A stretch of 42,849 nt of DNA, taken from an uncultured Ruminococcus sp. GTDB taxonomy: Bacteria > Bacillota > Clostridia > Oscillospirales > Ruminococcaceae. The notes beneath the pieces were generated by a model. The model ran no database searches. It was given only the letters and a program-made list of their open reading frames with translations, and was not told the origin of the DNA. Location: NCBI GenBank assembly GCA_902780695.1, contig CACZGM010000007.1:2269-45117 (forward strand). Reading direction: 5' to 3'. Of the stretch, positions 29,565-32,117 are shown in pieces (position 1 is the stretch's first letter; each line of letters opens with the position of its first letter). A program made the position numbers and the translations under genes.

Positions 29565-31640
29565 TTGTTTAAAGAATTTGAGCCGGAATGGGAAGGCTTC
29601 AAGCCCGGCAAATGGAGCTCCGCGGGCATAAACGTGCGTGACTTCATCGAACTTAATTTTACGCCTTATGACGGTGACGAGAGCTTTCTCGAAGGCCCGA
29701 CCGAAGCGACGAAAAAGCTGTGGGAGCAGGTCATGGATCTCTCCAGACAGGAACGCGAAGCGGGCGGCGTGCTCGATATGGATACAAAGATAATCTCCAC
29801 CATAACCTCGCACGGTCCCGGATATCTCAACAAGGATCTCGAAAAGATCGTCGGTCTCCAGACCGACAAGCCGTTCAAGCGCGCTCTCCAGCCATTCGGC
29901 GGTATCAGAATGGCGCAGCAGGCGTGCAAGGAATACGGCTATGAGGTCGATCCGGAGGTCGTGGAGATATTCACGAAGTACAGAAAGACTCACAATCAGG
30001 GCGTTTTCGACGCATATACGCCGGAAATGAGGCTTGCGAGAAAATCCGCGATACTCACCGGTCTGCCGGACGCTTACGGACGCGGACGCATAATAGGCGA
30101 CTACCGCAGGATAGCGCTGTACGGAACAGACAATCTGATACTCGACAAGGGACATCAGAAAGAGACGCATTTCGTCAGAATGACATCCAAGAACATACGT
30201 CTCCGCGAGGAGCTTTCCGAGCAGATACGCGCTCTTGAGGAGCTCCGTGAGCTCGGCGCTATGTACGGCTGCGATATCTCACGCCCCGCAAAGAACGCGA
30301 GAGAGGCTGTACAGTGGCTTTACTTCGGCTATCTTGCCGCGGTAAAGGAGCAGAACGGCGCGGCAATGAGCCTCGGCAGAACTTCCACGTTCCTCGATAT
30401 CTTCATAAAGCGCGACATGGACAAGGGCATACTTACCGAATCCGAAGCACAGGAGCTTATCGACCAGTTCATAATGAAGCTGCGCATAGTGAAGTTCGCC
30501 AGAACTCCCGAATACAACGCGCTCTTCTCCGGCGACCCGACATGGGTGACCGAGTCCATAGGCGGCGTTACCGTTGACGGACAGCACATGGTAACGAAGA
30601 ACTCCTACCGCTATCTCAACACGCTCAACAATCTCGGCACGGCTCCCGAGCCGAATATGACCGTTCTGTGGTCGAAGAGGCTGCCGCAGAATTTCAAGCG
30701 TTTCTGCGCGAAGATGTCGATAAAGACCTCCTCGATACAGTACGAAAACGACGACCTGATGCGCGTTATCCACGGCGACGACTACGCGATAGCCTGCTGT
30801 GTATCTTCAATGCGCGTCGGCAAGGAGATGCAGTTCTTCGGTGCGAGAGCGAACCTCGCAAAGTGCCTGCTGTACGCTATAAACGGCGGCGTGGACGAGG
30901 TGATGAAGGTGCAGGTCGGACCCAAGTACCGTCCTGTTGTGGGAGATTACCTCGACTACAACGACGTAATGGACAAGTACGACCAGATGATGGAATGGCT
31001 CGCGGAGCTGTACGTCAACACGCTGAACATAATTCACTATATGCACGACAAGTACAGCTATGAGAAGCTGCAGATGGCGCTGCATGACCGCGATGTAAAG
31101 CGCTATTTCGCAACGGGTATTGCGGGACTGTCGGTCGTTGCCGACTCCCTCAGCGCGATAAAGTACGCAAAAGTAAAGTGCATACGCGACGAAAACGGAA
31201 TTGTCGTTGACTACGAGACAGAGGGAGAATTCCCGAAGTACGGCAACGATGATGACAGAGTAGATCAGATAGCCGTTGACATCGTGAGAATGTTCATGGA
31301 CAAGATACGCAAGCACCACACATACCGCGAGAGTATCCCCACGATGAGCATACTTACGATAACATCAAATGTCGTTTACGGCAAAAAGACCGGAAACACG
31401 CCCGACGGAAGAAAGCACGGAGTACCGCTCGCACCGGGCGCCAACCCGATGCACGGCCGTGATACTCACGGTGCGGTAGCTTCCCTGTCCTCGGTATCGA
31501 AACTGCCTTTCAAGCACGCGCAGGACGGTATATCCAACACGTTCTCGATCATACCTGACGCGCTCGGCAAGGACACGAAGATATTTGCGGGCGACCTCGA
31601 CCTTGACTCACTGCGATCGGAGGCAGAAAATGAGGACTGA
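29565..31640 (+). CDS. pflB: Pyruvate formate-lyase catalytic subunit lacking the glycyl-radical domain
   Basis: This 691-aa protein should cleave pyruvate with CoA to acetyl-CoA and formate. The start is TTG at 29565 with GAAGGGAAG upstream; it reads (M)FKEFEPEWEGFKPGKW, the normal PFL N-terminus. Active-site Cys411-Cys412 lie in AIACCVSSMRVGKEMQFFGA, followed by RANLAKCLLYAINGG. The C-terminal HTYRESIPTMSILTITSNVV, GNTPDGRK and QDGISNTFSIIPDALGK are present. The protein then stops after SLRSEAENED. Full-length PFL (about 740-760 aa) continues for roughly 70 residues with the RVSGYAV radical loop, which is missing. That domain is supplied by a separate gene at 31878. The last 11 nt overlap the next ORF. 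Confidence 0.95.
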   Translation: MFKEFEPEWEGFKPGKWSSAGINVRDFIELNFTPYDGDESFLEGPTEATKKLWEQVMDLSRQEREAGGVLDMDTKIISTITSHGPGYLNKDLEKIVGLQTDKPFKRALQPFGGIRMAQQACKEYGYEVDPEVVEIFTKYRKTHNQGVFDAYTPEMRLARKSAILTGLPDAYGRGRIIGDYRRIALYGTDNLILDKGHQKETHFVRMTSKNIRLREELSEQIRALEELRELGAMYGCDISRPAKNAREAVQWLYFGYLAAVKEQNGAAMSLGRTSTFLDIFIKRDMDKGILTESEAQELIDQFIMKLRIVKFARTPEYNALFSGDPTWVTESIGGVTVDGQHMVTKNSYRYLNTLNNLGTAPEPNMTVLWSKRLPQNFKRFCAKMSIKTSSIQYENDDLMRVIHGDDYAIACCVSSMRVGKEMQFFGARANLAKCLLYAINGGVDEVMKVQVGPKYRPVVGDYLDYNDVMDKYDQMMEWLAELYVNTLNIIHYMHDKYSYEKLQMALHDRDVKRYFATGIAGLSVVADSLSAIKYAKVKCIRDENGIVVDYETEGEFPKYGNDDDRVDQIAVDIVRMFMDKIRKHHTYRESIPTMSILTITSNVVYGKKTGNTPDGRKHGVPLAPGANPMHGRDTHGAVASLSSVSKLPFKHAQDGISNTFSIIPDALGKDTKIFAGDLDLDSLRSEAENED

Positions 31641-31863
31641 CGGCACTGCTCCCGTAACGGACAATGATGCTGACGAGCTCGCAGCGCTGATCGACGGTCT
31701 TATGGCTTCCGGAACACAGCATATCAATCTCGATGCCGGAGCAGCCACACGGATCACCACCGTGAACAGCACAGACTGCGGCAGGACCGGTGCCTGCGCT
31801 GTACCGAACTTTGACAGCGAAGACCCTGACGAAGAGCTTTACAACGAAGAGGACAAGATATGA
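31630..31863 (+). CDS. 77-aa acidic ORF resembling the N-terminal half of a glycyl-radical domain
   Basis: This ORF starts inside the end of pflB with GGAGG 6 nt before its ATG, and its TGA is just before the ribosome site of the next gene. Its ADELAALIDGLMASGTQHIN aligns with VDNLVELIDGYAEKGGHHLN of the stand-alone glycyl-radical protein downstream. After NLDAGAATRITTVN the similarity ends. The radical loop RVSGY is absent; instead there is a Cys-containing stretch (STDCGRTGACAVPN) and a very acidic tail ending ELYNEEDKI. It may be a decayed or re-purposed copy of the PFL C-terminal domain. The function is unknown. Translation is likely from its tight packing and good ribosome site. Confidence 0.65.
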   Translation: MRTDGTAPVTDNDADELAALIDGLMASGTQHINLDAGAATRITTVNSTDCGRTGACAVPNFDSEDPDEELYNEEDKI

Positions 31864-31877
31864 AAGGAGATAATAAT

Positions 31878-32117
31878 ATGGCAAACGAACAGCAGGTTGA
31901 TAACCTCGTTGAACTTATCGACGGTTATGCCGAAAAAGGCGGACACCACCTGAATGTGAATGTTTTCACCCGCGAGACACTTCTCGACGCACAGGCACAC
32001 CCGGAGAAATATCCGCAGCTCACAGTGCGCGTTTCGGGCTACGCCGTCAACTTCATCAAGCTCACCAAGGAGCAGCAGGACGACGTAATCTCCCGTACAT
32101 TCCACGACCATATATAA
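31878..32117 (+). CDS. Stand-alone glycyl-radical domain of pyruvate formate-lyase (GrcA/YfiD-like)
   Basis: This 79-aa protein equals the C-terminal domain of PFL. NLVELIDGYAEKGGHHLNVN and RETLLDAQAHPEKYPQLT lead to the radical loop VRVSGYAVNF with Gly54, followed by KLTKEQQDDVISRTFHDH. The start is ATG 31878 with AAAGGAG 9 nt before; an ATG six codons earlier overlaps that ribosome site and is less likely. In E. coli YfiD/GrcA such a protein repairs oxygen-cleaved PFL. Here the adjacent PflB has no radical domain of its own, so this protein is probably an obligatory subunit. It would be activated by the PflA encoded next, via S-adenosylmethionine radical chemistry. Confidence 0.92.
   Translation: MANEQQVDNLVELIDGYAEKGGHHLNVNVFTRETLLDAQAHPEKYPQLTVRVSGYAVNFIKLTKEQQDDVISRTFHDHI

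What the first reader, a model, noticed from the sequence alone, without database searches (positions are those of the whole stretch)
29565..32117. Split pyruvate formate-lyase: catalytic subunit and glycyl-radical domain are separate genes
Seen: PflB ends after SLRSEAENED at 691 aa with the Cys411-Cys412 pair intact but without RVSGYAV. A 79-aa protein with VRVSGYAVNF (Gly54) is encoded 237 bp later, and pflA follows. Known: PFL normally carries both parts in one chain; YfiD/GrcA is a spare radical domain that rescues oxygen-damaged PFL. Inference: here the spare-part arrangement is the normal state, a two-piece enzyme whose radical subunit can be exchanged after oxygen damage without remaking the 691-aa subunit. 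A simple frameshift does not explain it, because a whole extra ORF with its own ribosome site lies between.
Basis: partly seen in the sequence, partly recalled or inferred. Interest (0 to 1): 0.8.

Follow-up and report, generated by a model that had tools for sequence, protein, structure and literature searches.

The report
Split fermentation enzyme with cysteine arm
In this relative of Ruminococcus the fermentation enzyme pyruvate formate-lyase is encoded in separate pieces: a large catalytic part, a small part with the predicted radical site that could likely be swapped after oxygen damage, and a tiny cysteine-pair protein that likely keeps the open active site in working order.

Summary
pflB (691 aa, Cys411-Cys412) stops before the radical-bearing end of the chain; a 79-aa radical protein (NCBIfam GrcA3, above cut-off) lies downstream and pflA follows. 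It is the only PFL in the genome. The same split occurs in 24 of 148 family genomes, the window's own included, and sporadically in other phyla, so it is not an assembly error.

The 77-aa protein between the genes belongs to an unnamed conserved family. Its first half is homologous to the start of GrcA3; its second half carries a conserved cysteine pair. Of 158 distinct split operons, 99 have it between core and grcA3 and 52 instead carry a cysteine pair on the PflB tail; none has both. Of the other 7, 5 encode a copy elsewhere (3 of these are weak matches). In 148 genomes the free protein occurs only with split PFL. Split cores also share Cys434 (152 of 153), absent from 37 of 37 classic fused PFLs.

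Best reading: an obligate split PFL with an exchangeable radical subunit plus a thiol arm that likely guards or re-reduces the catalytic cysteines. The arm's function is untested.

The parts
29565..31640 (+). pflB: PFL catalytic core without the radical-bearing end, 691 aa
   Evidence: TIGR01255 1138 bits over profile 1-664/744; Gly_radical only 2-51/106; only PFL-like gene in the genome
30795..30800 (+). Cys411-Cys412, catalytic cysteine pair
   Evidence: invariant in 115 of 115 split and 7 of 7 fused PFLs aligned
30864..30866 (+). Cys434, split-lineage cysteine (Thr in E. coli PFL)
   Evidence: 152 of 153 split cores, 0 of 37 classic fused PFLs; E. coli residue from the alignment
31630..31863 (+). 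middle gene: 77-aa cysteine-pair (thiol-arm) protein; overlaps the pflB stop by 11 nt
   Evidence: conserved family; no Pfam or NCBIfam match; dN/dS 0.03-0.34 in 15 of 16 pairs, the 16th saturated
31777..31797 (+). Cys50 ... Cys56, the cysteine pair of the middle protein (followed by AVPN)
   Evidence: both invariant in 28 of 28 rows of A2; Cys56 invariant and Cys50 at least 90% in the 48 rows of A4
31878..32117 (+). grcA3: 79-aa glycyl-radical subunit
   Evidence: NF038360 170.2 bits, cut-off 158; 22 of the 24 family copies aligned, mean column identity 84%
32037..32039 (+). Gly54, predicted site of the glycyl radical (RVSGYAV)
   Evidence: invariant; GrcA3 profile aligns with E. coli PFL 682-759
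32121..32154 (+). 13-bp stem-loop between grcA3 and pflA
   Evidence: in 50 of 95 loci with a detectable pflA the stretch between grcA3 and pflA folds below -12 kcal/mol (no shuffled control)
32198..32941 (+). pflA: radical-SAM activating enzyme
   Evidence: TIGR02493 288.7 bits, cut-off 231.75

Best explanation
Pyruvate formate-lyase is encoded here as a catalytic core without the radical-bearing end, a separate glycyl-radical-type subunit (GrcA3) and a small cysteine-pair protein, and it likely works by GrcA3 docking into the open barrel of the core while the cysteine pair acts as a thiol arm that guards or re-reduces the catalytic cysteines whenever that slot is empty. Shown by sequence: the three parts, their genome-wide association, the break inside the radical domain, and the alternation of the cysteine pair between a PflB tail (in cis) and a separate protein (in trans). 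Inferred: PflA puts the radical on Gly54 of GrcA3, GrcA3 supplies the missing strand and radical loop, and oxygen damage is repaired by replacing the 9-kDa subunit. Inferred with less certainty: the arm's dithiol is used on Cys411-Cys412, perhaps through Cys434, much as the C-terminal cysteines of class I and II ribonucleotide reductases serve their active site.
For: Single PFL in the genome; 24 of 148 family genomes have GrcA3 above cut-off, all in short frames next to a truncated pflB. 158 distinct split operons: 99 linked trans, 52 cis, none both; of the 7 left, 5 have an unlinked copy, two by strong and three by weak matches. Whole-genome search with the arm model: strong hits in 18 of 148 genomes, all with split PFL; weak hits only at radical domains of GrcA3 or fused PFLs. 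hhalign middle versus GrcA3: 95.6%, E 1.3e-8 over 31 columns. At least 9 cis/trans changes on the PflB tree. A fused PFL nested in the split clade keeps a CDNC linker and Cys434. Cys434 in 152 of 153 split, 0 of 37 classic fused. Purifying selection on the middle protein. Precedents: truncated E. coli core plus truncated YfiD is active (PMC8683613); split class II RNR, whose small NrdJb subunit provides thiol-disulfide exchange (PMC4520616).
Against: No experiment shows redox action of the arm. Two split genomes show no arm (G397, where PflB itself is in pieces in the assembly, and Collinsella aerofaciens G398), and three of the unlinked copies are weak matches (E 1.4e-7, 3.7e-6, 4.0e-4). One split core with an arm lacks Cys434 (L228). 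Cys434 is one of 27 split-specific columns, so it may only mark the lineage. The spacing of the pair varies from 0 to 8 residues. AlphaFold2 gave a weak model of the middle protein (pTM 0.30); in a cis PflB the tail (666-706) is under pLDDT 50, but so are core stretches such as 596-635, so docking was neither seen nor excluded. PFL, unlike ribonucleotide reductase, forms no active-site disulfide in normal turnover (recalled), so the arm would be needed for damage only.
Confidence: 0.5

Rival explanations
1. The middle protein is a docking or activation platform: its radical-domain-like helix and strand replace the stub (E. coli residues 696-733) that helps YfiD bind the core and be activated; the cysteines are secondary.
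For: Its first half is homologous to that part of the radical domain. Removing 696-733 of E. coli PFL cut activation of full-length YfiD 32-fold (PMC8683613 section 5).
Against: In 52 cis loci the tail has no such helix-strand segment, only the cysteine pair and its flanks; the cysteines are among the best conserved positions. With the short form of YfiD, which GrcA3 resembles, the loss of the stub did less harm.
Confidence: 0.25
2. The arm is a placeholder: it plugs the radical slot of an empty core, mechanically shielding it until GrcA3 displaces it, with no redox chemistry.
For: The segment shared with GrcA3 suggests competition for one slot; the cis tail starts where the rest of the radical domain would.
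Against: A plug does not need two cysteines in nearly every copy; cis tails lack the shared segment.
Confidence: 0.15
3. The cysteine pair binds a metal or an Fe-S cluster, as in the small subunits of benzylsuccinate synthase and 4-hydroxyphenylacetate decarboxylase or the zinc site of NrdD.
For: Small cysteine-bearing subunits are known in other glycyl radical enzymes (recalled); some copies have 3 or 4 cysteines.
Against: Only two cysteines are conserved throughout and their spacing varies from 0 to 8, poor for a fixed site; no family match.
Confidence: 0.06
4. Broken gene or assembly error; the middle ORF is a decaying remnant of the radical domain.
For: The first half of the middle ORF is homologous to the radical domain.
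Against: The split recurs in 158 distinct operons, with the middle gene in 99; dN/dS 0.03-0.34; the new second half is conserved across genera.
Confidence: 0.02

Closest known systems
Pyruvate formate-lyase PflB (TIGR01255; E. coli 1h16/2pfl)
   Different: PflB aligns with E. coli PFL up to about residue 681, GrcA3 from 682 on; a split-lineage Cys434.
GrcA3, autonomous glycyl radical cofactor (NCBIfam NF038360)
   Same: Member by score (170.2, cut-off 158).
   Different: Here it is the only radical domain for the only PFL, not a spare beside a full-length enzyme.
GrcA/YfiD of E. coli, Y06I of phage T4
   Same: Separate radical domain that completes an oxygen-cleaved PFL (PMC8683613).
   Different: Scores 97.2 against a cut-off of 170; no 60-residue N-terminal half; E. 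coli keeps a full-length PFL.
PDB 38la and 38lb, 'Formate acetyltransferase'
   Same: Best PDB sequence matches of PflB; neither is listed among the 34 matches of the GrcA3 profile.
   Different: Organism, entry titles and any paper were not seen; no arm protein matched in the PDB (best E 0.053).
Split class II ribonucleotide reductase NrdJa-NrdJb and C-terminal cysteines of NrdA
   Same: Radical enzyme whose small separate subunit supplies the dithiol for the active site (PMC4520616, abstract and passages).
   Different: No homology seen; a different reaction; such a role in PFL is untested.

Membership tests
Pyruvate formate-lyase (TIGR01255) | Core match above the curated cut-off with the catalytic Cys-Cys pair | tested here: met
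   1138 bits, cut-off 994; Cys411-Cys412
Pyruvate formate-lyase (TIGR01255) | Radical glycine in the same chain | tested here: not met
   Profile match stops at 664/744; no RVSGYAV in PflB
GrcA3 (NF038360) | Score above the curated cut-off | tested here: met
   170.2, cut-off 158
GrcA/YfiD spare part (TIGR04365) | Score above cut-off and N-terminal extension | tested here: not met
   97.2, cut-off 170; matches only profile 65-125 of 126
GrcA/YfiD spare part (TIGR04365) | Full-length PFL present to be repaired | tested here: not met
   One PFL-like gene, truncated; the genome is a draft of 153 contigs, 96.8% complete
NrdJb/NrdA-type dithiol arm | C-terminal cysteine pair on a flexible end | tested here: inconclusive
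   Pair in 28 of 28 rows and an acidic end (mean acidic fraction of the last 15 residues 0.35); flexibility only suggested by low pLDDT
NrdJb/NrdA-type dithiol arm | Sequence relation to ribonucleotide reductases | tested here: inconclusive
   No Pfam, NCBIfam or significant PDB match, but the protein is short
NrdJb/NrdA-type dithiol arm | Thiol-disulfide exchange with the active-site cysteines | not testable with these tools
   needs purified proteins
Fe-S small subunits of BSS/HPAD | Fixed four-cysteine (or more) cluster motif (recalled) | tested here: not met
   Two conserved cysteines, spacing 0 to 8

The most novel reading that the evidence does not exclude
A recyclable pyruvate formate-lyase: oxygen damage on both sides of the active site is repaired separately, the cleaved glycine by swapping the 9-kDa GrcA3 subunit and the oxidised cysteine pair by a dedicated dithiol arm, which evolution has moved several times between a PflB tail and a free protein built on a piece of the radical domain. 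It would be a glycyl-radical counterpart of the split ribonucleotide reductase NrdJa-NrdJb.
Probability: 0.35. Interest if true: 0.87.

Novelty: new variant of a known kind. Interest (0 to 1): 0.74.

Why it matters
Glycyl radical enzymes of the PFL kind are described as single chains that oxygen destroys, with GrcA as a rescue part. Here a lineage of anaerobes that includes named Ruminococcus species has made the exchangeable form the only form, and has attached to it a conserved cysteine-pair component that has no name. That gives a natural system for asking how a radical subunit docks, how it is activated, and how a glycyl radical enzyme survives oxygen. An oxygen-recoverable PFL could also be useful for formate-based biotechnology.

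Tried and rejected
Frameshift or assembly error: rejected, since independent genomes have the same layout and the middle ORF is under purifying selection. Misbinned contig: not favoured. The adhE two genes upstream of pflB is closest, among 41 genomes drawn, to genus mates (90 and 88% identity); but that draw held no other genus of the same family, so the test is limited. In the genus 2 of 40 genomes have GrcA3 above cut-off, 13 have the match inside a long frame of 744-807 aa (fused PFL), 2 in other long frames and 23 have none, so the operon looks patchily inherited or transferred.

Fold search with the middle protein: not run, as the model was too weak (pLDDT 58.6, pTM 0.30). Sequence search of the middle profile in the PDB gave only chance-level matches (best E 0.053). 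The model of a cis-tailed PflB found E. coli PFL but could not place the tail; 38la and 38lb did not appear in that fold library's results (entries up to 2026-04-08), so their titles were not seen.

A model of core plus GrcA3 plus middle protein could not be run (single chains only, and no joining).

Literature: searches returned no paper; one listed 7 and 81 listed 20 of 24, none of which by title or abstract start is about a naturally split PFL or GrcA3. Most subscription papers are not held, so this does not show that nothing is in print. Seen: PMC8683613 abstract, start of the introduction, passages and section 5; PMC12338860 abstract and passages; PMC12288474 passages; PMC4520616 abstract and passages. 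Kammel and Sawers 2022 (PMC9112899) is not held; only its title was seen in reference lists.

Rows dropped: P0006, a 114-aa hit on a 720-base contig that joins a PflA start to an arm end, was left out of the alignments (it may be an assembly chimera or a real fusion; not followed). L037 and L048 were left out of the GrcA3 alignment A3. One search kept 84 of 97 arm proteins, of which 48 (the window's and 47 others) went into A4. In one search the pattern matched 38 distinct fused PFLs (37 classic, 1 re-fused); fused loci that it did not match or that were duplicates are not counted. In one search, 6 near-duplicate ids were put on the leave-out list.

Script mistakes noted: one search labelled four loci (L121, L139, L189, L198) 'trans' because GrcA3 itself matches the arm model; corrected. 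One search labelled four cis loci (L069, L086, L144, L146) 'no GrcA3, both' for the same reason; one search shows them as cis with GrcA3 and no middle gene. L121 was missed and added by hand. One search missed L111 and L142 (both cis). The Fisher test used 98 trans instead of 99 and ignores kinship; I do not rely on it. One search returned nothing because of a wrong pattern; repeated rightly in 102.
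Full report
What is there. pflB (29565-31640) encodes 691 aa with the catalytic Cys411-Cys412. It matches the PFL equivalog model TIGR01255 with 1138 bits (cut-off 994), but only over profile positions 1-664 of 744. Pfam Gly_radical is matched over positions 2-51 by PflB and over 50-106 by the 79-aa protein at 31878-32117. One domain is therefore cut cleanly between two genes. 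The 79-aa protein is GrcA3 by NCBIfam (170.2 bits, cut-off 158) and carries RVSGYAV with Gly54. pflA follows at 32198-32941. Between pflB and grcA3 lies a 77-aa ORF (31630-31863) with its own GGAGG, overlapping the pflB stop by 11 nt; it matches no Pfam or NCBIfam model.

No other PFL. A search of the draft genome (153 contigs, 96.8% complete) finds one PFL-like gene. Of three Gly_radical matches two are the halves above and the third lies in the class III ribonucleotide reductase NrdD (Pfam NRDD 656 bits). There is one GrcA3-type match in the genome.

How common. Of 148 genomes drawn from the family, 24 have GrcA3 above cut-off (the window's own included), all in short frames; nearly all the other matches lie in long frames of fused enzymes. 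In a larger draw it is 87 of 396 genomes at E 1e-45, in 24 of 126 genera, frames of 81-161 residues. In the genus it is 2 of 40 above cut-off, and in a draw from the phylum 2 of 398 at E 1e-42, one of them the window's genome. Names of MAGs are as deposited.

The middle protein is a family. The first search found 12 relatives (11 used, one odd fragment set aside), and a profile of 48 found 157; the 120 listed have no Pfam domain and, where a source names one, it says hypothetical protein. Cys50 and Cys56 are invariant in 28 aligned sequences. In 15 of 16 close pairs where dS could be computed, dN/dS is 0.03-0.34. Its first half is homologous to the start of GrcA3: hhalign gives 95.6% and E 1.3e-8 over 31 columns, and nothing beyond them. 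In a search of 148 whole genomes with its model, every weak match (4e-6 to 8e-4) fell on the radical domain of a GrcA3 or of a fused PFL. The second half, with the cysteine pair, has no counterpart there.

In cis or in trans. I classified the split loci by script (with corrections told under Tried and rejected). Among 158 distinct operons, 99 have the middle gene between pflB and grcA3 and no cysteine pair in the PflB tail; 52 lack the gene but have at least two cysteines in the PflB tail (for example CSNGACASPTLFEGLD in L090, while free proteins of Lachnospiraceae end CSRTPLACSVPTLHQGLD); none has both. Seven have neither at the locus. In five of these the genome encodes a copy elsewhere: G111 and G190 by strong matches (1.7e-17, 4.2e-17), and G288, G396 and G177 by weak ones (1.4e-7, 3.7e-6, 4.0e-4) that are nevertheless free ORFs of 72-80 residues with a cysteine pair. 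In two none was found (G397, where PflB is in pieces in the assembly, and Collinsella aerofaciens G398). In the 148-genome set strong matches (E up to 3.4e-16) occur in 18 genomes: 17 at the split locus and one, G111, on another contig; the other 6 split genomes are the cis ones. So 24 of 24 split genomes have the arm in one form, and none of the 124 others has the free protein. One of those 124, G122, carries the cysteine pair as a linker in a fused PFL (below); the tails and linkers of most other fused PFLs in that set were not read, only those of the 37 counted, none of which has a pair.

History. In a tree of 123 rows the split cores form one group against 7 fused PFLs of the same family (support 100, fasttree). 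In a tree of 121 rows cis and trans need at least 9 changes (quick tree, so approximate; well-supported branches alone force 5 to 7 changes of the two labels). A fused PFL, L207 of G122 (seen first as L058), sits inside the split group on a long branch. It has a linker of about 29 residues with CDNC between core and a GrcA3-like domain, and no free arm was found in that genome. I read it as a re-fusion that kept the cysteine pair.

A third cysteine. Position 434 of PflB, 22 residues after Cys412, is Cys in 152 of 153 distinct split cores and in none of 37 classic fused PFLs; the re-fused one has it. In E. coli it is Thr, six residues after an arginine that binds pyruvate (the arginine's role is recalled). 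Against over-reading: it is one of 27 split-specific columns in an alignment with only 7 fused rows, 2 of them full length, and L228 has an arm but Ala there.

How it may work. E. coli studies give the frame. A core truncated at 695 plus YfiD without its first 60 residues, a laboratory counterpart of core plus GrcA3, took up radical (2.7 against 15.9 uM for the cPFL:YfiD complex) and turned over at 204 per s (PMC8683613 section 5). So a split enzyme can work. The barrel of the core is incomplete until GrcA3 brings the strand and the radical loop (inference from that paper's account of the structures). When GrcA3 is cleaved by oxygen it could be replaced. In 8 of 8 genomes where a grcA3 was found away from pflB there is also a split pflB with its own grcA3 (in two, L233 and L234, pflB is cut by the contig end); three of three neighbours tested by Pfam are Crp-family regulators. 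This fits separate supply of the radical subunit.

The arm. A small cysteine-pair element that moves between tail and free protein, tied to a core with its own exposed cysteine pair, resembles the C-terminal cysteines of class I and II ribonucleotide reductases. In Pseudomonas aeruginosa the class II enzyme is itself split, and the small NrdJb subunit provides thiol-disulfide exchange (PMC4520616). Oxygen chemistry in E. coli PFL involves Cys419 as well as Gly734 (titles in a reference list; that a sulfinyl radical forms on Cys419 is recalled). I therefore favour a dithiol arm that keeps or restores the catalytic pair while the radical slot is empty. The docking-platform rival is real, because the segment shared with the radical domain overlaps the one whose removal hurt YfiD activation in E. 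coli; but cis tails lack it, so the cysteine pair is what all forms share.

Limits. No structure of the complex, no expression data, no redox data. Counts of related loci are not independent events; the tree count of 9 changes is the fairer number. GrcA3 is already a named NCBIfam family, and two recent PDB chains (38la, 38lb) look like split-type cores by sequence, so other workers may know of such enzymes; the arm family and its in-cis/in-trans rule were not found in the libraries or paper searches used here.

Noticed in passing
window 25910-28741: AdhE-like aldehyde-alcohol dehydrogenase with a C-terminal tail of about 70 residues rich in Lys, Ala and RGRK repeats, like a histone H1 or AT-hook tail. 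L064 has it, and alignments to genus mates G813 and G805 run to its end.
   Followed up: partly
window 32121-32154: Strong 13-bp stem-loop between grcA3 and pflA without a T run on the coding strand; in 50 of 95 loci this stretch folds below -12 kcal/mol (no shuffled control). It could let grcA3 be made in excess of pflA.
   Followed up: partly
L103, L118, L127 (also L112, L122 by eye): Second, lone grcA3 copy beside a Crp-family regulator in genomes that also have a split pflB-grcA3 pair.
   Followed up: partly
L207:284-2671: A fused PFL nested among split ones, with a cysteine-pair linker between core and radical domain: an apparent re-fusion.
   Followed up: partly
L099 and L109 grcA3: Two Gastranaerophilales GrcA3 proteins end in CGC, so a cysteine motif also sits on the radical subunit there (2 of 142 distinct).
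   Followed up: no
L121, L209: Variant orders: pflA lies between pflB and grcA3 in a Eubacterium MAG (L121); in G111 (L209) a formate/nitrite transporter gene, not pflA, follows grcA3, and the arm gene lies on another contig.
   Followed up: partly
P0006: A 114-aa protein on a 720-base contig joins a PflA start to an arm-protein end; assembly chimera or real fusion not decided.
   Followed up: no
window 28758-29507: An APH/choline-kinase-like phosphotransferase between adhE and pflB, function unknown.
   Followed up: no
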